Assembly: GCA_011176615.1 (NCBI GenBank)
Contig: DUEG01000014.1
Coordinates: forward strand, 1-45,642
Length of the DNA stretch: 45,642 nucleotides
Direction: 5' to 3'
DNA from: Anaerolineae bacterium
Lineage (GTDB): Bacteria > Chloroflexota > Anaerolineae > Anaerolineales > UBA11858
The translations under genes were made by a program, and so were the position numbers. Within the stretch, counting starts at the first letter, position 1. Each line of letters starts with the position of its first letter. The notes under the pieces were generated by a model. It saw only the letters and a program-made list of their open reading frames with translations, was not told where the DNA came from and made no database searches. Shown here one piece after another: positions 3,058 through 36,626 of the stretch.

Positions 3058-3414
3058 TTGGACAATAATTGGCTTTATATAGGATTGTTCTTTCTTGTTG
3101 CACCGTTGATACCTGCTTTAGCGATACTGGCTCCGTTGTTTCTCGCACCCAAAAAACCAAACAAAATAAAAAGCCAGATTTATGAATGTGGCATTGAGAC
3201 TTATGGGGAAACCTGGATTCAATTCAAGGTGCAGTATTATATTTTTGCACTTATATTTTTGGTCTTTGATATTGAAACAGTCTTTTTATACCCCTGGGCA
3301 GTGGCATACAATAGTTTGCCACTTTTTGCTGTATTTGAGGGTGTTTTGTTTATTATTATCCTTTTGGCTGGTCTGGTCTATGTATGGCGTAAAGGCGATC
3401 TGGAATGGGTATAA
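3058..3414 (+). CDS. nuoA: NADH-quinone oxidoreductase subunit A
   Basis: Small membrane subunit (118 residues, usual length) of complex I that sits next to the quinone entry site. Three hydrophobic segments are visible, with the family motifs YECG at about 41-44 and a VFDIET region before the third helix. The start is TTG at 3058, chosen because AAGGAG ends 9 bases upstream and the protein then begins in the usual place. It is the first gene of the nuoA-H-J-K-L-M-M'-N run. The genes that normally follow it (nuoB, C, D) are absent here. Confidence 0.95.
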   Translation: MDNNWLYIGLFFLVAPLIPALAILAPLFLAPKKPNKIKSQIYECGIETYGETWIQFKVQYYIFALIFLVFDIETVFLYPWAVAYNSLPLFAVFEGVLFIIILLAGLVYVWRKGDLEWV

Positions 3415-3484
3415 GATGCTGATAATAGTCTCGTTTTCAGAGTTATTTATTTAAACAGACATACCTTGATTGGGAGTTCTTTGA

Positions 3485-4699
3485 ATGAGTGATCCGATTA
3501 ATCTAATTGCAAACTGGTTACAGGGATTGTTACTTGGCTTGGGACTATCTGTTGGATTGACCAAGATTATCCTGTCTTTCGTTGGCGCGGTTGTTGTTGC
3601 GACGATTGGCATGCTCACGGTAATTTTCCTGATCTGGTTGGAGAGAAAAATTGCGGGGCGTATTCAAGATCGATTGGGACCTAATCGGGCTGGACCCTAT
3701 GGTTTACTACAACCATTCGCTGATGTGATCAAAATATTAACAAAAGAATATACAACCCCTGATGGCGCGGACGTTGTAGTCTATAACATTGCTCCAATTA
3801 TGGCTGTTGCGTCTGTATTATTGATTTGGGCTGTTATCCCATTTGCTTCAACAGTAGTAGGCACAAACCTGAATGTTGGTGTTTTATATATTATGGCTGT
3901 TGGAGCCTTTGGTTTACTCTCTATACTCATGGCGGGTTTGTCTTCAAATAATAAATTTGCACTTTTGGGTGCATTCAGATCGGTTGCGCAATTGATCTCG
4001 TATGAAATACCAATGGTTGTATCGCTTTTGATGCCCGTAATTTTCGCAAGATCTATGGGTTTAGTAGATATCGTGGAAGCGCAAATGCCTTGGTTTATCA
4101 TCTTATCTCCCTTGGCTGCTTTAATCTTTATAATAGCCTCAATGGCGGAAGTCAACAGGGCGCCTTTTGATCTTATGGAAGCCGAGTCCGAAATTGTTGC
4201 TGGTTTTCACATAGAATATTCAGGAATGAAATTTGGAATGTTTTATGTTGGAGAATTTTTGCATGTATTTACTGTCGGCGCATTAGTGGCTACACTGTTC
4301 TTGGGGGGTTGGCGTGGGCCATGGGCGGAACAATATCCAATTCTAGGGTTAATATATTTTTATATAAAGACATTTGTTGGATATTTTATAGTGGCTTGGG
4401 TAAGGTTGACAGTGCCAAGGATTAGGATTGATCAGATGTTGGATTTCAATTGGAAATTTTTAACACCCTTATCTTTGGTTTTATTAATAATTACCGCTGT
4501 TCTTGATAGGGTTTTGGTATTGGTGAATAGCGAGCGATGGGTTTACAGTTTAGTCATGTTCCTTGCAAATATTCTCATAATTTGGGCTACCGTTGAAGTA
4601 TTGAAAAAAACTACATCAAAACCAAAGCGCAAAGAGTTTCCAATGCGCCCTGTAGCAATGGCACCAGAAACATCAACATCAACTGAACCCTCTTCATAG
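3485..4699 (+). CDS. nuoH: NADH-quinone oxidoreductase subunit H
   Basis: Membrane subunit that forms the quinone chamber and the link between redox arm and proton arm. The conserved cytosolic loop around EVNRAPFDLMEAESE is intact, as is the N-terminal WLERKIAGRIQDRLGPNRAG motif (residues 51-70). At 404 residues it is longer than the E. coli protein of about 325, with an N-terminal hydrophobic extension of about 30 residues and a basic then Thr/Ser-rich C-terminal tail after residue 375. It is separated from nuoA by 70 bases and followed by nuoJ after 27. No nuoI lies between H and J, which is where it usually sits. Confidence 0.96.
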   Translation: MSDPINLIANWLQGLLLGLGLSVGLTKIILSFVGAVVVATIGMLTVIFLIWLERKIAGRIQDRLGPNRAGPYGLLQPFADVIKILTKEYTTPDGADVVVYNIAPIMAVASVLLIWAVIPFASTVVGTNLNVGVLYIMAVGAFGLLSILMAGLSSNNKFALLGAFRSVAQLISYEIPMVVSLLMPVIFARSMGLVDIVEAQMPWFIILSPLAALIFIIASMAEVNRAPFDLMEAESEIVAGFHIEYSGMKFGMFYVGEFLHVFTVGALVATLFLGGWRGPWAEQYPILGLIYFYIKTFVGYFIVAWVRLTVPRIRIDQMLDFNWKFLTPLSLVLLIITAVLDRVLVLVNSERWVYSLVMFLANILIIWATVEVLKKTTSKPKRKEFPMRPVAMAPETSTSTEPSS

Positions 4700-4726
4700 A
4701 TTTAATTCGTTGCTTGGAGTGGATTA

Positions 4727-5233
4727 ATGACCGGAATGGATAGTTTGTTCTTAATTTTTGCTGTGATTACGCTGATTTCTGCTTTTTTGGTGGTAACCAC
4801 GAAGAACTTATTTCATGCTGCCTTATGGCTGATCATGACATTGTTTGGAGTTGCAGCAATCTATGTGTTACTAAATGCTTTTTACTTGGCGGTAATACAA
4901 GTAATTGTTTATATTGGTGCAATTGCGATTTTGATGATCTTCGCGATTATGCTTACCCAAAGAGTTATGAATCCTTCTGGGAGGATATTTAATAAGAATT
5001 GGATAATCGCTGCTCTTTTAGGGGCTTTTATGTTTATTGGTCTGGTTATCATAAGTATGCAAACTGGTGCGAGCAAGACAACTTTGCCTCAGATCAGTGG
5101 TCAACTGGACACAGTATCTGAACTCGGTCAAGCACTGGTTTCTCCGAATGCTTATGTGATCCCGTTCGAGGTAGCGTCCGTGTTGCTTCTCGCAGCACTT
5201 ATAGGCGCTATCTTTGTCTCACGAAAGAGATGA
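4727..5233 (+). CDS. nuoJ: NADH-quinone oxidoreductase subunit J
   Basis: Membrane subunit of complex I (168 residues) with five hydrophobic segments. The third-helix region YIGAIAILMIFAIML matches the NuoJ helix with the pi-bulge that couples quinone reduction to the proton path. The start ATG at 4727 follows a weak GGAGTGG sequence. The stop at 5231-5233 is 13 bases before the nuoK start, so J and K are likely co-translated. Confidence 0.95.
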   Translation: MTGMDSLFLIFAVITLISAFLVVTTKNLFHAALWLIMTLFGVAAIYVLLNAFYLAVIQVIVYIGAIAILMIFAIMLTQRVMNPSGRIFNKNWIIAALLGAFMFIGLVIISMQTGASKTTLPQISGQLDTVSELGQALVSPNAYVIPFEVASVLLLAALIGAIFVSRKR

Positions 5234-5246
5234 ATTGGAGGAAAAA

Positions 5247-5555
5247 GTGATAACACTCAATTGGGTCCTAATTTTCTCAGCCGCCCTTTTTTCCATTGGG
5301 CTATTCGGTGTTCTCGCGCGGCGGAATGCGGTTGCTATATTAATGGGCATAGAACTTATGCTGAATGCAGTTAATGTTAATTTAGTTGGGTTCTGGCGTT
5401 TTTCAAATCCTGCGGTAATCACCGGTCAAGCGTTTGCTGTGATCGTCTTCGCGGTGGCTGCTGCAGAAGTCGCTGTTGGATTAGCACTTGTTATTTCGAT
5501 ATATCGTCGTCGAAAGACAATTGCGGCTGACGATATTGACCTTATGAAATGGTAA
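5247..5555 (+). CDS. nuoK: NADH-quinone oxidoreductase subunit K
   Basis: Small three-helix membrane subunit, 102 residues from the GTG at 5247. This start is preferred over the upstream in-frame ATG at 5214 because GGAGG sits at 5237-5241, the length then fits the family, and the upstream start would overlap nuoJ. Both proton-path glutamates are present: E36 in GIELMLN and E74 in AAAEVAVG. The next gene, nuoL, starts 10 bases after the stop. Confidence 0.95.
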   Translation: MITLNWVLIFSAALFSIGLFGVLARRNAVAILMGIELMLNAVNVNLVGFWRFSNPAVITGQAFAVIVFAVAAAEVAVGLALVISIYRRRKTIAADDIDLMKW

Positions 5556-5565
5556 CGGAGAAGTT

Positions 5566-7749
5566 ATGGGAATAAAGACGTTGATCTGGCTTTTACCCCT
5601 TCCGCCATTATTGGCATTTTTTATCATTGTCCTCTTCACAAATCGTAAAAAGGCTTTAAGTCATACGATTTCAGTTGGTGCTGCTTTTCTATCATGGCTT
5701 GGAAGTATGGTGGTTTTTTTCTTCGCTGTTCAGAAAGGTGCTCATCAGTTGGGAGAACATCCATTTGCATCTTCTATTAATTGGCTGCCTTTGGCGGATA
5801 AATGGTTAAAAATCGGTGTAATGGTAGATCCGTTAACGGCTGTCGGACTGTTCTTTGTGGCATGGACAGTTTTTATGATCTTTATTTACAGCATCGGATA
5901 TCAAAATTACGGACAACCAAAGGGCGATCACGATCAAAAAGGGTTGCCCCCACACGGTGCTACTGTCATTGACGAGCAAGGACACAAACACAAAGTCCCT
6001 TCCATTGAACCTATGTATTCCCGCTTTTTTGCATTTATTGGGCTGTTCGCTTTCGGGATGTATACACTGATTATTTCCGATAATATGCTGACGCTTTTCG
6101 TTGGATGGGAGATTATGGGGTTGTGTTCATACTTACTAATTGGTTTTTGGTATGCGAAACCCTCCGCGCGGGCTGCGATGATCAAAGCGTTCATCACCAC
6201 ACGTGTGGGCGATGTGTTCATGCTATTAGGAATTGGTGCTCTTTATGCCTTTACAAAGACATTGAACTTCAGAGAGATATTCTTTAATGAAGAATTGCTT
6301 CATAAAATGGCGACTACGCCTTCTGGCTTCTTTGGGCTCTCAGTTGCTGGGTTGATTGGTATCTTGTTATTTATTGGTACCGTAGGTAAATCCGCTCAAT
6401 TCCCATTGCACGTATGGCTACCAGACGCGATGGAAGGTCCAACGCCGGTTTCAGCGATGATCCATGCTGCAACCATGGTTTCTGCGGGCGTTTATATGGT
6501 CATTCGAATGTTCCCTTTGCTATCCGCAGGAGCACAGCATGGAGAGTTAACTTCGCCAATGATGGCAATGGCATTCATTGGCGCGTTCACTGCATTATTT
6601 GCTGCATCCATCGCCCTAGCGCAGAATGATATTAAGAGGGTTCTCGCGTTTTCCACAATATCACAATTGGGTTATATGATCGCTGCACTGGGAATTGGCG
6701 CCTATGTGGCTGCTATCTTCCATTTATTAACGCATGCGTTTTTCAAGGCTTTGCTCTTTTTAGGTTCTGGGTCGGTCATTCATGGCATGGAACATGGTAT
6801 CTATCATGTTGATGAGGATATAGACCCACAAAATATGTTCAATATGGGTGGTTTAAGGAAGAAAATGCCGATTACATTCTGGACCTTTTTAGCGGGTGGT
6901 CTGGCACTTTCCGGATTTCCAATTATCACAGCAGGTTTTTGGTCAAAAGATGAGATTTTAGCAGATGCATTCTCGAACGGTCACTGGATGGTATTTGGAA
7001 CGCTAGCCTTTGCTGCTCTACTTACAGCGTTTTATACAATGCGTCAAATCACTCTGACATTTTTAGGAAAACCAAAAACTAGAGCAGCAGGACATGCACA
7101 AGAAACACATTGGACGATGACTCTTCCATTAGTTGTCTTAGCGATCTTTGCGATTGGGTTCGGTTGGGTGGGTATCCCTGAACAATTCCCATTAATTGGG
7201 GGATTGATACCCAATTGGCTCCATGATTTCGTGATAACCACACTCCCGCACCATTTGGGTGAGGTTGGGTTTAACTGGGCTCCCTTACTAACATCCTTGG
7301 TAGTAGCCTTAGGTGGCTTGTTCTTGGGCTGGTATGTTTATAAGGATGTGCCTGCTGGCGCGGAAGACCCCTTAAAGAAGCCGATGGGATTTGTTTATAA
7401 AGTACTTCAGAACAAGTATTACTTCGATGAACTTTATGACATTATTTTTATAAAACCAGCCATTTGGTTCTCAGAGACGGTCTCTTATTTATGGATGGAT
7501 AGAAAAATTATTGATGGCATCTTGCATTTTATAGCGAGAATTGCTTTCCAATTAGGCACTATCTTTCGGGATTGGTTTGACGTTCCAGTGGTTAATGGAT
7601 TTGGGGATTTTGTAGGTGAAAGTACGAAAAAGATCGGGAAATCCCTGCGAGTGGTTCAAACTGGACGAGTGCAGCAATATATGTTGATTGCCCTTGTAAT
7701 CACGGTTGCAACACTTTTCTACTATCTATTTTCAGTTTTCACACCGTAA
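5566..7749 (+). CDS. nuoL: NADH-quinone oxidoreductase subunit L (extended form)
   Basis: Distal antiporter-like proton-pumping subunit of complex I. Key residues are present: E182 in TM5 (VGWEIMG), K275 in TM7 (GKSAQF), the HAATMV motif near 300 and FWSKDE in TM12. The protein is 727 residues against about 610-660 usually. One insertion is a hydrophilic His/Asp-rich loop at about 115-150. The other lies in the C-terminal lateral helix, where a 27-residue unit is repeated (W643-M-D and W670-F-D, each followed by a hydrophobic pair and D/N-G) before the terminal LRVVQTGRVQ motif and last transmembrane helix. This fits a NuoL that spans an extra NuoM. Confidence 0.96.
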   Translation: MGIKTLIWLLPLPPLLAFFIIVLFTNRKKALSHTISVGAAFLSWLGSMVVFFFAVQKGAHQLGEHPFASSINWLPLADKWLKIGVMVDPLTAVGLFFVAWTVFMIFIYSIGYQNYGQPKGDHDQKGLPPHGATVIDEQGHKHKVPSIEPMYSRFFAFIGLFAFGMYTLIISDNMLTLFVGWEIMGLCSYLLIGFWYAKPSARAAMIKAFITTRVGDVFMLLGIGALYAFTKTLNFREIFFNEELLHKMATTPSGFFGLSVAGLIGILLFIGTVGKSAQFPLHVWLPDAMEGPTPVSAMIHAATMVSAGVYMVIRMFPLLSAGAQHGELTSPMMAMAFIGAFTALFAASIALAQNDIKRVLAFSTISQLGYMIAALGIGAYVAAIFHLLTHAFFKALLFLGSGSVIHGMEHGIYHVDEDIDPQNMFNMGGLRKKMPITFWTFLAGGLALSGFPIITAGFWSKDEILADAFSNGHWMVFGTLAFAALLTAFYTMRQITLTFLGKPKTRAAGHAQETHWTMTLPLVVLAIFAIGFGWVGIPEQFPLIGGLIPNWLHDFVITTLPHHLGEVGFNWAPLLTSLVVALGGLFLGWYVYKDVPAGAEDPLKKPMGFVYKVLQNKYYFDELYDIIFIKPAIWFSETVSYLWMDRKIIDGILHFIARIAFQLGTIFRDWFDVPVVNGFGDFVGESTKKIGKSLRVVQTGRVQQYMLIALVITVATLFYYLFSVFTP

Positions 7750-7775: not shown

Positions 7776-9335
7776 GTGGAGCGATTTATGAGTTTTCTTG
7801 ATAACAATTTACTGACATTGATTTTGTTTTTTCCAGTGGCATCTTCATTGGTCTTACTTTTTCTTCCCGGCAAAGAGAAAAAGTTAATTCGCTGGGTTGC
7901 CTTGTTGGCGAGCCTAGTTCCTCTTATTTTGTCTATTATTTTATGGCTGAACTTTAAAACGGGAATAAAAGGATTTCAATTCGAGGAACATTATGTCTGG
8001 TATAGCGCGATTAACTCGTCTTACCATCTTGGGATTGACGGGATTTCGCTTACGATGGTGTTATTGACTACGTTGCTTATACCAATTGCAATCTTGGCAT
8101 CCTTCAACATTGAGGAAAATGTCAAGGCTTATATGGTTCTGTTCCTACTATTGGAGACCGGATTGCTTGGTGTTTTCGTTTCCTTAGATTTACTTCTTTT
8201 CTTCGTTTTTTGGGAAATAGGTCTTGTCCCCATGTATTTCCTGATCAATCAATGGGGTTCAGAGAAAGGTGAACGTGAATTATGGGGTGGCATTAAGGTC
8301 AAGGCTAGAACTTATGCATCGTTTAAGTTCCTGATATACACCATGACGGGATCTTTGGGGCTTTTGCTTGCTATCCAGATGATTGGTGTTGTTTCTGGCA
8401 CTTTTGATTTACCGACGTTATTTGCAAGTTGGACGACATTGAACCAAAGTTTATTTGGTTTACCAATCGAAACTGTGAAAACAATCGCTTTTTGGGCATT
8501 TACAATCGCTTTTGCATTGAAAGTTCCTGTTTGGCCTTTTCATACGTGGCTTCCTGATGCCCACACAGAGGCGCCTACTGCAGGATCAATGATTTTGGCA
8601 GGTGTTCTGCTAAAACTTGGGGCATATGGATTTTTGCGGCTTGTTCTCCCACTATATCCGGTAGAATCCAAGCATTATGCAGGTGCGTTGGCTTTTCTTG
8701 CAACAATGTCCATCATCTTTGGGGCGTTTAGCGCTTTCGGACAGCGCGATTTCAAACGTCTCGTTGCATATTCTTCAGTGAACCACATGGGATTTGTCGT
8801 TTTAGGTATCGCAGCCGCGGCGCGGGTACAAGGGACTGAGAATGCTGTAATTGCTCTTAATGGTGCAGTATTACAAATGTTCAATCATGGTATATCTGCA
8901 GCAGGGATGTTCTTTTTGGTCGGTGTGATTTATTCCAGGACTCATACACGGAACCTGGATGATTATGGCGGTTTGTTTACCTTGGTTCCTGTTTATGGTG
9001 GCATATTAATCTTTACGTCTATGGGCGCCCTTGGATTACCTGGTTTGAATGGGTTTGTTTCCGAGTTTCTGGTTGTCAGAGGATCCTGGCCAATCTTCTC
9101 GGTTTATACAGCCTTTGCAATGGTTGGTTTGTTATTTACAGGTGCGTATGTTCTCAAAGGAATTAAACAAGTCCTGCATGGTCCTTTAAATGAAAAATGG
9201 ATTGGACATTTATCTGAAATAAGTGCACGGGAGGTAATCGTTATTGCACCTTTGATGGTGATCATGCTGTGGATTGGTGTTTGGCCGGCATGGATTTTAA
9301 ATGTTATCAATCGTGCTGTAGAGGTGTTATTCTAG
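7776..9335 (+). CDS. nuoM: NADH-quinone oxidoreductase subunit M (first copy)
   Basis: Antiporter-like proton-pumping subunit. Numbered from the GTG at 7776, the essential charges are intact: E147 in TM5 (FWEIGLVPMY), K249 in TM7 (ALKVPVWPFH), K280 in TM8 (GVLLKLG) and the TM12 Glu in GFVSEF. An insert of about 20 residues, rich in Lys, Arg and Gly, follows TM5 (about 161-180). The start could equally be the ATG at 7788, which has TGGAG 6 bases upstream and would give the more typical N-terminus; the difference is four residues. It is the fifth gene after nuoA and is followed by a second nuoM. Confidence 0.95.
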   Translation: MERFMSFLDNNLLTLILFFPVASSLVLLFLPGKEKKLIRWVALLASLVPLILSIILWLNFKTGIKGFQFEEHYVWYSAINSSYHLGIDGISLTMVLLTTLLIPIAILASFNIEENVKAYMVLFLLLETGLLGVFVSLDLLLFFVFWEIGLVPMYFLINQWGSEKGERELWGGIKVKARTYASFKFLIYTMTGSLGLLLAIQMIGVVSGTFDLPTLFASWTTLNQSLFGLPIETVKTIAFWAFTIAFALKVPVWPFHTWLPDAHTEAPTAGSMILAGVLLKLGAYGFLRLVLPLYPVESKHYAGALAFLATMSIIFGAFSAFGQRDFKRLVAYSSVNHMGFVVLGIAAAARVQGTENAVIALNGAVLQMFNHGISAAGMFFLVGVIYSRTHTRNLDDYGGLFTLVPVYGGILIFTSMGALGLPGLNGFVSEFLVVRGSWPIFSVYTAFAMVGLLFTGAYVLKGIKQVLHGPLNEKWIGHLSEISAREVIVIAPLMVIMLWIGVWPAWILNVINRAVEVLF

Positions 9336-9387: not shown

Positions 9388-10860
9388 ATGCAGTTTCCTG
9401 TCATCAGTGTTATCGTTTTTACACCAATAATTACTTCATTATTACTTTTAATAATGCCTGGAAATCGAAAAACAGAAATCCGCGTTACATCATTAGGAGC
9501 TGCAGCGCTGGATTTGTCTTTATCAATTTGGCTATATTTTTCCTATAATGTGTCTGCCGGTGGGTATCAATTTGTCGAACAGTATAACTGGCTACCTCAA
9601 TTTGGAATATCCTATCATGTAGGCGTGGATGGACTGAACACCCCCTTGGTCTTACTCACGGGTGTGGTTATGTTTACGGGTGTCCTGATTTCCTGGGGTG
9701 TAGACGATAGACCCCGAGAATTTTTTGCATTTCTGTTTATTTTGGCAACAGGTGTATTTGGCGTTTTTGTATCCTTAGATTTGTTCATGCTTTTCTTTTT
9801 CTATGAAATCGCTGTCTTTCCAATGTATCTGTTGATTTCGACTTGGGGTTGGAAAGTAACGCGTGAATACGCTGCAATGAAATTGACTTTGTACCTTTTC
9901 ATAGGCTCCGTTGTTGCTTTAATTGGCGCATTAGCAATGTATTTCAATTCTGGCTTGGGTTCATTTGACTTAATAACGCTGGAAACAGCCAACTTTTCCG
10001 TGGGATTTCAGCGGTTTTGGTTTCCGTTTGTTTTTATTGGATTCGCAGTGCTTGGTGGTCTTTTCCCTTTCCACAACTGGAGCCCTGACGGTCATGTGGC
10101 TGCACCAACAGCAGTGTCCATGTTTCACGCAGGTGTTTTGATGAAACTAGGCGCCTTTGCATCCTTGAGGATTGGTATCATGCTCCTGCCCGAGGGCGCA
10201 AAATTCTGGATGCCTACTATCATCTTGCTTACACTGGTGAATGTGGTCTATGGTGCTTTTATTGCAAGCGTTCAGACAGATTTTAAATATGTTGTCGGGT
10301 TCTCTTCGGTTTCCCATATGGGACTTGTGGCAATGGGATTTGCTACTTTGAATAGAGAAGGATTGATTGGATCGGGTGTCCAGATGTTCTCGCATGGTGT
10401 GATGACAGCACTTTTCTTTGCTGTTGTAGGAATGATCTACGATAGGGCGCATACCCGACAAATCCCTGAATTAGGAGGATTTGCCAAGAAAATGCCACTT
10501 GTAGCGGTAGCATTTATTGTTGGCGGTTTAGTATCGATGGGTATGCCAGGCTTTTCGGGATTTGTTGCGGAGTTCCCCATTTTTATGGGTGTCTGGGAAT
10601 TTAAACCATGGATTGCGATTGTAGGAGCCATTTCGATTGTGATAACGGCATCCTATATTATTCGAATTATTAGCAGCGTTTTCTTTGGGAAAATGCCAGA
10701 ATCTTATGCTGACCATATCACCGATGTGAAAGTATTGGATAAAGTGGCTCTGATATTTCTTTCTGTGCTTTTAATTGTTATAGGCGTTTTTCCTTCAATT
10801 ATGGTGCCAATGGTTGAATCGGGTGTTGAAAACATCTTGCGCCTATTAGGAGGTGCATAA
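9388..10860 (+). CDS. nuoM: NADH-quinone oxidoreductase subunit M, second copy (NuoM')
   Basis: A second full-length NuoM-type subunit (490 residues) with the family motifs GVDGLN, YEIAVFPMY (E140 in TM5), HAGVLMKLGA (K253 in TM8) and GFVAEF (TM12 Glu). The TM7 lysine is missing. The GFAVLGGLFPFH stretch has Leu at position 222 (codon 10051-10053), whereas the first NuoM, NuoL and NuoN of this operon all have Lys five residues before the PFH or PLH proline. It may be structurally incorporated but pump differently or not at all, which is inference. Its TAA abuts the GTG start of nuoN. RBS and ATG spacing at 9388 are normal (GAGGTGAAAT). Confidence 0.94.
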   Translation: MQFPVISVIVFTPIITSLLLLIMPGNRKTEIRVTSLGAAALDLSLSIWLYFSYNVSAGGYQFVEQYNWLPQFGISYHVGVDGLNTPLVLLTGVVMFTGVLISWGVDDRPREFFAFLFILATGVFGVFVSLDLFMLFFFYEIAVFPMYLLISTWGWKVTREYAAMKLTLYLFIGSVVALIGALAMYFNSGLGSFDLITLETANFSVGFQRFWFPFVFIGFAVLGGLFPFHNWSPDGHVAAPTAVSMFHAGVLMKLGAFASLRIGIMLLPEGAKFWMPTIILLTLVNVVYGAFIASVQTDFKYVVGFSSVSHMGLVAMGFATLNREGLIGSGVQMFSHGVMTALFFAVVGMIYDRAHTRQIPELGGFAKKMPLVAVAFIVGGLVSMGMPGFSGFVAEFPIFMGVWEFKPWIAIVGAISIVITASYIIRIISSVFFGKMPESYADHITDVKVLDKVALIFLSVLLIVIGVFPSIMVPMVESGVENILRLLGGA

Positions 10861-12312
10861 GTGTTCGGAAGCATTAATACATCTATGATCTTAGCAATCT
10901 TGCCTGAGATAATGCTGTTTATCCTAGCGGGTTTTGTATTTGTTTTCGACTTGGTGTGGGACGATAGCCAGCGCAGAAATCTAGGTTGGATATCAGCAGG
11001 TGGTTTTTCTCTCATTATCATGATTAGTTTGATGCTTGGTACACCGGGTAGTGATAGTGGATTGGTCTGGGGCGGCATGCTCCGCCATGATTGGCTAGGC
11101 TTTGCATTCAAGATGTTGTTCTTATTCGGGGCAACAATAACTGCATTGTTTGCTATGGATGTGGAAGATTTGGGCAAGAAAGGCGAATTTTATTTGCTTT
11201 TGATATTCTCCACATTAGGGATGACATTGATGGCGTCTTCAAGCAATTTAATTATGCTGTATCTATCTATCGAAGCGACATCACTGCCTCTTTATATTCT
11301 TGCGGGCTTTTTCAAAGACGATGATAAATCAACAGAAGCGGGATTTAAATATTTTCTGTTTGGAGCGATGGCTTCAGCCATTATGCTTTATGGGTTCAGC
11401 CTATTATACGGATTTAGCGGTACGACAGATTTAGATGCCATTGCTGGTGTGATAAAAGCAGGAGGCATGAATCCAGTTCTTCTTGTTGGTACTCTTTTAA
11501 TGATATTAGTGGGTTTTGGTTTCAAGATATCAGCAGTACCATTCCACTTTTGGGCTCCAGATGTGTATGAGGGCGCTCCAACAGTTGTTGCAGGATTTTT
11601 ATCCACCGCTTCAAAAGCTGCAGGCTTTACCGTCCTTATCCGAGTGCTTTTGACATCATATGCGCCAGCGAGCGATACTTGGATGATGGTTTTAGCAATT
11701 ATTTCTACACTCACAATGACATTGGGAAATACACTCGCACTTGCTCAAAAGAATATCAAACGCTTGTTAGCATATTCATCCATCGCACACGCTGGTTATA
11801 TACTGATTGGCGTTGTTGCTATCTCGGAACTGGGTATAACTGGTTCTATATTTTATATAATTGTCTATTTGATCACGAATCTCGCAGCCTTCGGGATTGT
11901 ATCTGTAGTCGGGCGAATTACGGGATCGGATGAGATTAGCGCTTATGATGGGTTAAGCCGTCGATCTCCTTGGTTGGGGTTAGCGATGCTTGTTGTGTTC
12001 TTATCACTTGCGGGAATGCCTCCGTTTGGAGGATTTATTGTTAAAGTTCTTGTGCTTGCATCTGCTGTAAAGGCGAAACTGTTTTGGCTGGCGTTTGTGG
12101 GTATTCTAAATTCAATTATTGGTTTGTACTACTATCTGATTGTGTTGAAACATGTATATTTGTATCGGTCAGAGAATGAGCAAGTAGAAATTCCTGTAAC
12201 AAGACCATATGCAATTGGGTTAATTGTATTAACGATTGGGATTATCTTACTTGGTGTAGTCATTTCTCCATGGTTTAATGTCTCGACAATAGCGGCAAAA
12301 GTTCTATTTTGA
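10861..12312 (+). CDS. nuoN: NADH-quinone oxidoreductase subunit N
   Basis: Antiporter-like subunit next to NuoK (483 residues). The TM5 Glu (YLSIEATSLPLY), TM7 Lys (GFGFKISAVPFHFW), TM8 Lys (STASKAAGF) and TM12 Lys (GGFIVKVLVL) are all present, so it should be pump-competent. The GTG start directly follows the stop of the second nuoM and has GGAGG about 8 bases upstream. It is the last nuo gene of the run; the ATP synthase genes follow after 89 bases with their own promoter. Confidence 0.96.
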   Translation: MFGSINTSMILAILPEIMLFILAGFVFVFDLVWDDSQRRNLGWISAGGFSLIIMISLMLGTPGSDSGLVWGGMLRHDWLGFAFKMLFLFGATITALFAMDVEDLGKKGEFYLLLIFSTLGMTLMASSSNLIMLYLSIEATSLPLYILAGFFKDDDKSTEAGFKYFLFGAMASAIMLYGFSLLYGFSGTTDLDAIAGVIKAGGMNPVLLVGTLLMILVGFGFKISAVPFHFWAPDVYEGAPTVVAGFLSTASKAAGFTVLIRVLLTSYAPASDTWMMVLAIISTLTMTLGNTLALAQKNIKRLLAYSSIAHAGYILIGVVAISELGITGSIFYIIVYLITNLAAFGIVSVVGRITGSDEISAYDGLSRRSPWLGLAMLVVFLSLAGMPPFGGFIVKVLVLASAVKAKLFWLAFVGILNSIIGLYYYLIVLKHVYLYRSENEQVEIPVTRPYAIGLIVLTIGIILLGVVISPWFNVSTIAAKVLF

Positions 12313-34647: not shown

Positions 34648-35247
34648 ATGAATCAATTAACAATTTTGCTTCGGTCAACAATATTCGTTATTGGAGTTAC
34701 CAGTATCCTATTGGCAGCATTGAATGACTTAAGGTTAAAAATAATTATCTTAAGTATTCAATATGTCGGCGTATTTATTCTTGTCGCGCAATCGTGGCCA
34801 GTTAATCTGGCTCTGGTTAAGGTTGTCGCGGGATGGATGACTTGTGCAGTACTTGGAATTACTGTGAAAAAAAACAGATATAGGGAAAAGCGGGTAACCC
34901 GAGAAAATATTTCGGGCATTATATTCCGTTTTCTTGGAACTGTATTAATTGTCCTTACGATAATTGCAGTAACCCCAACACTCAGTAAATGGTTTATTGC
35001 TGTGAATACCGAACAATTATTTGGCGGAAGTTTACTAATTGGCATTGGTTTACTAATCATTGGGATGTATTCATCTTCAATGGATGTCTTTATTGGATTG
35101 CTCACTTTGCTTTCTGGATTTGAGATACTTTATTCAGCAATGGAAATATCAGTTCTTGTAGCGGGGTTATTAGCAGCGATTACGCTTGGAATTGCTCTGG
35201 TTGGGGCTTATTTGTATATTTTGGAAGCAACAGGTGATGCAGCATGA
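34648..35247 (+). CDS. HyfE/NuoK-like membrane protein
   Basis: A 199-residue protein with about six membrane helices. The C-terminal third resembles NuoK: the GFEILYSAMEISVLV stretch lines up with NuoK's GIELMLNAVNVNLV and keeps the glutamate as E159. The second NuoK glutamate is not conserved. Two-part organisation and size recall HyfE of hydrogenase-4-type complexes. The ATG at 34648 follows the upstream stop by 3 bases with AAGG at a good distance; a TTG one codon earlier is possible. It overlaps the next gene by 4 bases (ATGA). Confidence 0.65.
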   Translation: MNQLTILLRSTIFVIGVTSILLAALNDLRLKIIILSIQYVGVFILVAQSWPVNLALVKVVAGWMTCAVLGITVKKNRYREKRVTRENISGIIFRFLGTVLIVLTIIAVTPTLSKWFIAVNTEQLFGGSLLIGIGLLIIGMYSSSMDVFIGLLTLLSGFEILYSAMEISVLVAGLLAAITLGIALVGAYLYILEATGDAA

Positions 35248-36626
35248 GTTCAGCGCACATTTGGATTTTTACGCCTCTTGTTATCGCTGTAATCCTATTA
35301 TTATTGAGGAGATATATAAAGTTAAGTAACCTAATAAGTATCATAACTGCATTTATATTGGCTGCTCTTGCATGGTTGCTTCCAATCGGACAAGGATTCA
35401 CATTATTTGGTAAAAATATTCTGATACCTGGCGAATTTTTTGTTGTGGGCAGAAAGTTCGTCATTGATCCGCAGAATCTGTCGTTAATTGGTTTGGTTTA
35501 TCTGGCATTGGCTTTTTGGTATGGCGCTACATTGTTTTTTGAGATTGATGAACTATTTTATCCTCTTAGTCTCACGATTGTAGCGATGGATGTATCTGCC
35601 ATCTCTGTGAAGCCATTCTTATACGCTGCATTAGCCTTTGGGATTGTAGGGTTGTTGAGCATTTTCTTGTTGGATCAGTCAAAATATTCAGTTCGCCAAG
35701 GAAGTATAAGATTACTAACTTATCAAATCATAGGGATGGCATTTTTGTTACTGGCTGGTAGGGAATTGGATTTATTTAATCCCCGCGAATTTGATATTAA
35801 CGAAGCCGCGCTGGCACTTGTTTTCATCAGCGGTGGGATAATATTTTTACTTGGAATTTTCCCATTTCACTCATGGATTCCGATGATCGCAAAAAATACA
35901 AATCCTTATATCGCTGGTTTCGTTTTTTCAACATTACCTGGATTTATGTCTTTATATATTCTGAATTTTATACTTGAGTTTGAGTGGTTACGGGAAATTG
36001 CCTTGTTTTTCGATCTTCTTCGTATTGGAGGAATCGTTATGCTCCTTTTTGGGGGAATTTGGGCCGCGTTTCAAGACGATCTTCGTCAATTAATGGGATA
36101 TGCAGTACTTATAGAGATTGGTCGTTCGTTAATTGCATTATCGACCCAAATAGAGCCGACACGCTATTATGCTTTTTATATTCCAAGGTTGATTGGTTTT
36201 GGAGTATGGACATTGGCTTTGTACATGTTGTGCAAAAGGAAAGGAAGCTGCGATTTGTTATGTATACAAGGATTGGCAATAAAATTTCCACTACTGTCAT
36301 TAACATTATTGATTGCGATTTTCTCAATCGCTGGTGTACCTTTGCTTGCGGAATTCCCCATTATCTTATCGCTTTCTGATTTATTTAATGAATCTCACAG
36401 TATTATTACAATATCGTTGCTAGTGTCTAGCGGTGGTGTTTTACTGGCTGGTTTGCGTATATTGAACACAATGGTTGATTTCGAAAAGAGCGATGTTAAC
36501 GAAGAACAGGGGAGTAAGCAACTTGGATTAAATATCCTATTATTGTTAGGTTCATTTGCATTATTGGTGATGGGGATTGCACCACAATGGATTTATTCGA
36601 TGTTTGAGAGATTTCTATCCTTATGA
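35244..36626 (+). CDS. NuoN/HyfF-like membrane protein lacking proton-path residues
   Basis: A 460-residue protein with about 13-14 membrane helices. The fold signature of antiporter-like subunits is visible as IFPFHSWIPM (205-214), aligning with NuoN's PFHFWAPD. The TM7 Lys is Leu202, the TM8 Lys falls on Pro232 in STLPGF, the TM5 Glu position is non-polar near 130-133, and the TM12 Lys falls in the non-polar AEFPIILSL segment. It starts by a 4-base overlap with the upstream gene. It completes the folK-linked trio. The family call rests on motif spacing and is moderately sure; loss of the charges is read directly. Confidence 0.7.
   Translation: MSSAHIWIFTPLVIAVILLLLRRYIKLSNLISIITAFILAALAWLLPIGQGFTLFGKNILIPGEFFVVGRKFVIDPQNLSLIGLVYLALAFWYGATLFFEIDELFYPLSLTIVAMDVSAISVKPFLYAALAFGIVGLLSIFLLDQSKYSVRQGSIRLLTYQIIGMAFLLLAGRELDLFNPREFDINEAALALVFISGGIIFLLGIFPFHSWIPMIAKNTNPYIAGFVFSTLPGFMSLYILNFILEFEWLREIALFFDLLRIGGIVMLLFGGIWAAFQDDLRQLMGYAVLIEIGRSLIALSTQIEPTRYYAFYIPRLIGFGVWTLALYMLCKRKGSCDLLCIQGLAIKFPLLSLTLLIAIFSIAGVPLLAEFPIILSLSDLFNESHSIITISLLVSSGGVLLAGLRILNTMVDFEKSDVNEEQGSKQLGLNILLLLGSFALLVMGIAPQWIYSMFERFLSL

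What the first reader, a model, noticed from the sequence alone, without database searches (positions are those of the whole stretch)
9388..10860. Second NuoM lacks the essential TM7 lysine
In NuoL, NuoM and NuoN of this operon a Lys lies exactly five residues before the Pro of the PFH/PLH motif. In the second NuoM that position is Leu222 (codon CTT at 10051-10053). TM5 Glu140, TM8 Lys253 and the TM12 Glu are kept. In E. coli NuoM the TM7 Lys is required for activity. This copy may therefore be a spacer with an altered stoichiometry rather than a fourth pump.
Basis: partly seen in the sequence, partly recalled or inferred. Interest (0 to 1): 0.62.

Follow-up and report, generated by a model that had tools for sequence, protein, structure and literature searches.

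The report
NuoM without its key lysine
One of the two NuoM subunits of this bacterium's respiratory complex I has lost a lysine thought essential for proton pumping, but the loss is fixed in a whole family of NuoM proteins that carry a histidine on the next helix instead, so it is more likely a rewired pump than a dead spacer.

Summary
In the second NuoM (9388-10860) the TM7 lysine column holds Leu222 (codon CTT). It is neither an error nor a strain quirk. Among 284 distinct NuoM proteins read, 154 have Lys and 130 have Leu, the Leu being written with all six codons. In every operon holding both, the Lys copy lies next to nuoL and the Leu copy next to nuoN. The Leu proteins form one clade (support 100). 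It also holds the only NuoM of some complexes: 2 of 151 sampled Chloroflexota genomes and all 3 Bacteroidota records read. The spacer reading is therefore disfavoured, not excluded.

Leu proteins have a histidine on TM8 (His247; 129 of 130 against 0 of 154), aligned with the "histidine switch" of NuoL, and Ser instead of the TM7 gate leucine (129 of 130). All other axis residues are kept. M2 is not a copy of M1: they come from different NuoM lineages, and NuoL follows M1's lineage.

Best reading: a complex I with four antiporter-like subunits (2M, already known) whose M2 transmits, and probably pumps, through a Glu-His rather than a Glu-Lys pair. The function is untested.

The parts
9388..10860 (+). 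nuoM2, 490 aa: Leu-type NuoM (second NuoM of a 2M complex I)
   Evidence: ORF; TIGR01972 455 bits against a cut-off of 263.8; NuoM fold, best Z 51.5 over 482 residues
10051..10053 (+). Leu222, in place of the TM7 Lys (E. coli NuoM K234)
   Evidence: Leu in 130 of 130 Leu-type, Lys in 154 of 154 other NuoM
10081..10083 (+). Ser232, in place of the TM7 gate Leu (P. denitrificans L242, E. coli L244)
   Evidence: Ser in 129 of 130 Leu-type; Leu in 150 and Gln in 4 of 154 Lys-type
10126..10128 (+). His247 on TM8, gained; aligns with NuoL His254 / MrpA His248 (His switch); E. coli NuoM L259
   Evidence: His in 129 of 130 Leu-type and 0 of 154 Lys-type; alignment with this operon's NuoL
9805..9807 (+). 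Glu140, TM5 Glu, kept
   Evidence: 130 of 130 Leu-type
10144..10146 (+). Lys253, TM8 Lys, kept
   Evidence: 128 of 130 at this column; the other 2 have a Lys one residue earlier
10315..10317 (+). His310 (E. coli H322), kept
   Evidence: 130 of 130
10393..10395 (+). His336 (E. coli H348), kept
   Evidence: 128 of 130
10570..10572 (+). Glu395, TM12 terminal Glu (E. coli E407), kept
   Evidence: 130 of 130
7776..9335 (+). nuoM1, Lys-type NuoM, next to nuoL
   Evidence: Lys at the TM7 column; different NuoM lineage from nuoM2
5566..7749 (+). nuoL, 727 aa, with a lateral helix one 26-residue unit longer than usual
   Evidence: helix distance 78 against 46-51 in canonical complexes
10861..12312 (+). 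nuoN
   Evidence: all four axis residues kept
3058..5555 (+). nuoA, nuoH, nuoJ, nuoK of the same operon

Best explanation
The operon encodes a known kind of enlarged complex I, the 2M type with four antiporter-like subunits in gene order L-M1-M2-N. Its M2 belongs to a distinct and wide class of NuoM ('Leu-type'). In this class the TM5-Glu/TM7-Lys ion pair was given up: TM7 Lys became Leu, the TM7 gate Leu became Ser, and TM8 gained a His where NuoL, ND5 and MrpA have their mobile 'histidine switch', six residues before the TM8 Lys as in MrpA. I propose that Glu140 now works with His247: on its turn in the wave of charge changes the protonated imidazole, not a Lys, balances and then releases Glu140. 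The proton path then continues as usual over Lys253, His310/His336 and Glu395. M2 thus transmits the coupling signal and probably still moves a proton. Shown here: the substitutions, their strict association, the single origin of the class, its use as the only NuoM in other complexes, and the longer NuoL lateral helix. Inferred: the Glu140-His247 contact, transmission, proton movement, and M2's place next to NuoN (from gene order and trees).
For: TM7 Leu and TM8 His go together: 129 of 130 Leu-type have the His, 0 of 154 Lys-type do. Glu140, Lys165, His310 and Glu395 are invariant in 130 of 130 Leu-type; His336 and Lys253 in 128 of 130. One clade, support 100, one change of the TM7 residue. 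Sole NuoM between L and N in L132, L148, L186, L187, L189. In every locus holding a Lys-type and a Leu-type NuoM, the order is Lys then Leu, then nuoN wherever nuoN is held. M2 evolves as slowly as M1 (median dN 0.194 of 105 pairs against 0.207 of 97). His254 of NuoL and His248 of MrpA sit at a junction leading to the Lys-Glu pair, and MrpA has Lys254 six residues on (PMC13358369, PMC9568556, passages). NuoM fold intact.
Against: No structure or assay of any Leu-type NuoM was found. All Leu-type proteins share one origin, so about fifty other positions also distinguish them, and the His-Leu link is one historical event plus one reversal, not many independent ones. L126 has Leu222 without His247 (Leu there; it has Glu at 250), so the His is not strictly needed. 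The partner that NuoL's His uses on TM5 (Ser150 in E. coli) is Met146 here. E. coli FHL HycC has the same Lys-to-Leu change with the TM5 Glu kept, no clear path to the P side was seen in it, and its E135A and K239A mutants lost no significant H2 production (PMC9474812, passages). In P. denitrificans ND4 the TM7 Lys is essential and L242A nearly abolishes catalysis (PMC9802314). The model's confidence is low at residues 140-165 and 220-260, so the contact is not modelled.
Confidence: 0.55

Rival explanations
1. Spacer or relay: M2 lengthens the membrane arm and passes the electrostatic signal on, but moves no proton itself.
For: The TM7 Lys and the gate Leu, both essential in ND4 of P. denitrificans (PMC9802314), are both changed. 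HycC of FHL, with the same Lys-to-Leu change, tolerates loss of its TM5 Glu and TM8 Lys (PMC9474812).
Against: A spacer would not need Glu140, Lys253, His310, His336 and Glu395 all strictly kept. As the sole NuoM in 5 of the loci read a spacer would leave only two pumps. A real ex-antiporter relative in this same window (35244-36626) has no Lys in the TM7 motif and no Glu where the TM5 Glu would lie (read by eye). ND4 mutants never pumped less per electron: they slowed or died (PMC9802314).
Confidence: 0.22
2. Changed ion: with no Lys beside it, the TM5 Glu (with Ser232 nearby) binds Na+ or K+, and M2 exchanges a cation for protons.
For: Mrp antiporters of the same superfamily are proposed to bind Na+ near acidic residues, the TM5 Glu of MrpD (Glu137) being named as one option (PMC9568556). 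Removing a fixed positive charge makes cation binding at Glu140 easier (inference).
Against: No cation site was tested. His247 can supply the missing positive charge. Nothing links the class to sodium-rich places in these data.
Confidence: 0.1
3. Different partner: Glu140 of M2 pairs with a Lys of the neighbouring subunit, for example the TM12 Lys of NuoN, across the subunit boundary.
For: NuoN keeps its TM12 Lys (109 of 112 distinct NuoN of 2M loci, the other 3 gapped) and its own Glu-Lys pair. M2 lies next to nuoN in gene order.
Against: The same NuoN Lys is present beside Lys-type NuoM too (31 of 31), so it explains nothing specific, and no extra Lys appears at the NuoN columns checked.
Confidence: 0.1
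4. Sequencing error, frameshift or strain-specific decay.
For: None found.
Against: Leu in all 130 distinct Leu-type proteins, with six different codons; one uninterrupted ORF.
Confidence: 0.01

Closest known systems
2M complex I (Chadwick et al. 2018, ISME J; not held, known here through passages of PMC7117926, PMC9040806 and PMC8004040)
   Same: Extra nuoM between nuoM1 and nuoN; longer NuoL lateral helix; described in Chloroflexi including Anaerolinea and Chloroflexus aggregans.
   Different: The passages read treat the extra NuoM as an added pump and do not mention the TM7 Lys loss, the TM8 His gain or the Leu-type class. Whether the 2018 paper does could not be checked.
Canonical NuoM / Nqo13 / ND4
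   Same: Fold, TM5 Glu, TM8 Lys, two axis His, TM12 Glu.
   Different: No TM7 Lys, Ser for the gate Leu, extra TM8 His.
NuoL / ND5 / MrpA histidine switch (PMC13358369, PMC9568556)
   Same: His at the same TM8 column, 25 residues after the TM7 Lys column; as in MrpA a Lys follows six residues later; Ser307 lies where the His has a Thr partner.
   Different: NuoL and MrpA keep the TM7 Lys; the TM5 Ser partner is Met146 here; the sequence is NuoM otherwise.
HycC of E. coli formate hydrogenlyase (PMC9474812)
   Same: TM7 Lys replaced by Leu208, TM5 Glu135 kept, TM8 Lys239 kept.
   Different: A hydrogenase subunit with a Lys on TM11 (Lys336) and, per PMC13358369, Ser234 in place of the switch His; not complex I.

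Membership tests
NuoM subunit family (TIGR01972) | Score above the family cut-off | tested here: met
   455.1 bits against 263.8
NuoM subunit family (TIGR01972) | NuoM/ND4 fold | tested here: met
   Z 51.5, 1.8 A over 482 residues to mycobacterial NuoM; E. coli NuoM Z 49.1
NuoM subunit family (TIGR01972) | TM12 Glu (NuoL and NuoN have Lys) | tested here: met
   Glu395, 130 of 130 Leu-type
Canonical Lys-type proton-pumping antiporter-like subunit | TM5 Glu with TM7 Lys | tested here: not met
   Glu140 present, Leu222 in place of Lys
Canonical Lys-type proton-pumping antiporter-like subunit | TM8 Lys | tested here: met
   Lys253
Canonical Lys-type proton-pumping antiporter-like subunit | Moves protons | not testable with these tools
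   needs a biochemical assay
2M complex I | Two nuoM genes between nuoL and nuoN | tested here: met
   window order L-M1-M2-N; L-MK-ML-N in 76 loci
2M complex I | Longer lateral helix in NuoL | tested here: met
   78 residues between two fixed motifs against 46-51 in E. coli, Shinella and the two Leu-only Chloroflexota; but some single-NuoM operons also have long helices (L161, L172-L174, L176, L177)
2M complex I | nuoBCDI away from the operon with fused nuoCD (Chloroflexi, PMC7117926) | tested here: inconclusive
   no nuoB, C, D or I found beside nuoAHJKLMMN in this stretch; two NuoD places elsewhere in the genome, one in a 582-aa frame on contig 114, not tied to this complex
NuoL/MrpA-type histidine switch | His at the TM8 column | tested here: met
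   His247
NuoL/MrpA-type histidine switch | Ser on TM5 and Thr on TM10 as His partners, TM7 Lys | tested here: not met
   Met146, Ser307 and Leu222 at these columns
2M complex I of Nitrospirota | Leu at the TM7 column of its extra NuoM | not tested
   no Nitrospirota sequence could be reached with these tools

The most novel reading that the evidence does not exclude
Leu-type NuoM is a second working class of complex I pump module that couples without the Glu-Lys ion pair held to be universal and essential, using a Glu-His pair instead. The Chloroflexota 2M enzyme is then a chimera: a distal NuoL-M1(Lys) end from one complex I lineage joined to an M2(Leu)-NuoN middle from another, rather than the product of a tandem nuoM duplication.
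Probability: 0.4. Interest if true: 0.8.

Novelty: new variant of a known kind. Interest (0 to 1): 0.6.

Why it matters
Models of complex I give the TM5-Glu/TM7-Lys pair the role of the switch in every antiporter-like subunit, and laboratory mutants without the Lys are dead. A fixed natural class without it, used as the only NuoM in some bacteria, is a ready test of which parts of the mechanism are required. It also bears on how many protons 2M complexes pump per electron pair, which sets the energy budget assumed for these Chloroflexota, and it suggests a three-residue exchange that could be built and assayed in E. coli.

Tried and rejected
1) Both NuoM of family f16 lacking Lys: a first reading (tabulated again) showed Ala in M1 of L145 and L146. 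This was a pairwise alignment shift; the motif reads ALKIPIWPLH, with Lys. Retracted and recounted.

2) Spacer marked by relaxed constraint: M1 and M2 have the same median dN; dS is saturated, so no dN/dS could be given (0 usable pairs).

3) M2 as a recent tandem copy of M1: rejected (AU p = 1.3e-6; the group was named after the tree was seen, which weakens the test).

4) Compensation by a new Lys in NuoN or NuoL: none seen at the axis columns checked.

5) The lateral helix as proof of subunit number: not reliable. Single-NuoM operons L161 (80) and L172, L174, L176, L177 (103) and L173 (129) have long helices too. NuoL proteins lacking one of the two motifs, the Bacteroidota ones among them, were not measured.

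6) Structure: AlphaFold gave mean pLDDT 83 but under 50 at 230-244, and no coordinates could be read, so no Glu140-His247 distance is claimed. The second prediction job was not used.

7) Data handling: ORF labels in the scripts carried wrong coordinates (a counter was not advanced), so two equal-length ORFs could have shared a name. TM7/TM8 counts were redone with right labels and gene order. The residue frequencies quoted (130 Leu-type, 159 Lys-type, 2 gapped rows) were not redone. One fragment (L027) was dropped from 285, leaving 284.

A viral-contig scan found nothing.

9) Literature on the Lys loss: full-text searches showed no paper on Leu at this position in NuoM (titles and abstract starts; passages of those opened). 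Only HycC was found. The most relevant paper (Chadwick 2018) is not held.

Full report
What is there. The window carries nuoA, H, J, K, L, M1, M2, N, followed by ATP synthase genes. NuoM2 (9388-10860, 490 aa) is a clear NuoM (TIGR01972, 455 bits) with the NuoM fold (Z 51.5 over 482 residues). Aligned with its three operon relatives, Leu222 stands in the TM7 Lys column; TM5 Glu140, TM8 Lys253 and TM12 Glu395 are kept. The codon is CTT at 10051-10053. The genome (2.1 Mb in 168 contigs, 83% complete) also holds a second complex I on contig 7 with a single Lys-type NuoM.

Is it real and general? A scan of genome contigs gave 80 loci, all with Chloroflexota names, mostly Anaerolineales. A search of 61 relatives gave matches in 58. 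All 113 NuoM2-like ORFs held at that point have Leu. I then sampled 151 Chloroflexota genomes at E below 1e-98: 69 matched. Of these, 33 have a Leu-type NuoM, 31 of them beside a Lys-type NuoM and 2 (G170, G194) without one in that operon. Of the other 36 matching genomes I read 22 and all have Lys; 14 were not read, and 82 genomes had no match at that threshold. Across all loci read, 284 distinct NuoM proteins split into 154 with Lys and 130 with Leu at the TM7 column (one fragment dropped from 285). All six Leu codons occur, so the residue is under selection.

The rule of order. In every locus with both types the order is Lys-type, Leu-type, then nuoN wherever nuoN is held: L-MK-ML-N in 76 loci, MK-ML-N in 57, and cut versions of these; none has the reverse order (some loci overlap, for example several cover the window). 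PMC8004040 describes the same arrangement in Chloroflexus aggregans, with the extra nuoM between nuoM1 and nuoN.

Linked changes. Comparing Leu-type with Lys-type proteins, about fifty positions differ characteristically, as expected of one old clade. Two of them stand out next to the lost Lys. First, TM8 position 247 is His in 129 of 130 Leu-type and in 0 of 154 Lys-type (Leu 149, Val 5). It aligns with the TM8 His of NuoL in this operon, that is E. coli NuoL His254 and MrpA His248, the 'histidine switch' (PMC13358369, PMC9568556, passages). MrpA has this His and a Lys six residues on (His248, Lys254), as here (His247, Lys253); PMC9568556 states that MrpD has no such His. Second, the Leu of the H-x-W-L motif is Ser in 129 of 130; in P. 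denitrificans ND4 the matching L242A nearly abolished catalysis (PMC9802314). The one protein without the His (L126) also has Ala at the gate position and Glu at 250. Two proteins (f16) have the TM8 Lys one residue earlier.

A sole NuoM elsewhere. In G170 (L132) and G194 (L148) the Leu-type protein is the only NuoM between nuoL and nuoN (nuoL of L132 is cut by the locus start); both genomes also hold a second operon with a Lys-type NuoM (L159, L164). In the three Bacteroidota records found in the plasmid collection (Prevotella, Phocaeicola, Bacteroides; possibly chromosomal pieces labelled plasmid) the only NuoM of the operon is Leu-type, with the His and the Ser. B. fragilis NUO is described as lacking nuoEFG; no NADH activity or mouse colonisation defect could be shown for it (PMC7002350, passages), so this use as sole NuoM is not yet proof of pumping.

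Origins. In a tree of 89 NuoM the 31 Leu-type rows are one side of a branch with support 100, and the TM7 residue changes once. Their nearest relatives are single, Lys-type NuoM of other Chloroflexota. M1 of the same operons lies in a different part of the tree, with E. coli NuoM and the window genome's own second complex (supports 99 and 99). Holding M1 and M2 of 2M operons together is rejected (AU p 1.3e-6). NuoL of 2M operons falls on M1's side (support 97); NuoN falls, more weakly (92 and 86), on M2's side. The simplest account is a fusion of two complex I lineages, an L-M1 end added to an M2-N middle. Roots are midpoints and the trees are quick ones, so this is a lead.

The NuoL lateral helix. 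Between two fixed motifs it measures 46 in E. coli, 49-51 in six single-NuoM complexes including both Leu-only Chloroflexota, and 77-85 in 47 of 48 2M NuoL measured, the other being 102. The window's is 78. That fits an arm one subunit longer. However, some single-NuoM operons have long helices too, so helix length does not prove subunit number.

Mechanism. Shown: residues, association, clade, order, helix length, equal constraint on M1 and M2. Inferred: His247 takes over the charge-balancing role of the TM7 Lys for Glu140, so M2 still transmits and probably moves a proton. The spacer reading (0.22), a changed ion (0.1) and a Lys from a neighbour (0.1) remain. FHL HycC, with the same Lys-to-Leu change (PMC9474812), is the best support for a non-pumping reading and is told as such.

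Novelty. 2M complex I in Chloroflexi is known. A NuoM class defined by TM7 Leu, TM8 His and TM7 Ser, shared with Bacteroidota and used alone there, was not found in my searches, but the paper most likely to mention it (Chadwick 2018) could not be read. I call it a new variant of a known kind.

Noticed in passing
L172-L177 and L166 (family f1, genus g3): The NuoL lateral helix comes in steps of about 26 residues (about 51, 78, 103, 129), with self-similarity peaking at lag 26. G005 (L173) has the 129 form and G008, G012, G016 the 103 form, although each operon holds only one nuoM; no further nuoM-like gene next to them was found. This could mean several copies of one NuoM per complex, or a lost M2.
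   Followed up: partly
35244-36626: A 460-aa protein weakly matching PF00361 (48 bits) with no Lys in its PFH motif and no evident TM5 Glu: a degenerate antiporter-like membrane protein, between frames of 527 and 200 aa without Pfam match and a coiled-coil protein. Weak PF00361 matches in frames of similar length (462-483 aa) occur in four g3 genomes.
   Followed up: partly
L145 and L146 (family f16): In these M2 proteins the TM8 Lys has moved by one residue (VLKATG for VLMKLG) and the TM7 His (H236) is Tyr.
   Followed up: no
G000 contigs 46, 7, 112 and 114: The genome has two sets of NuoL/M/N genes and two NuoD places, but only one NuoF-type protein (contig 112), so the 2M complex may lack an NADH module or share one (the genome is 83% complete).
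   Followed up: no
L126 (G032): The only Leu-type NuoM without the TM8 His; it has Ala at the gate position and Glu three residues before the TM8 Lys.
   Followed up: no
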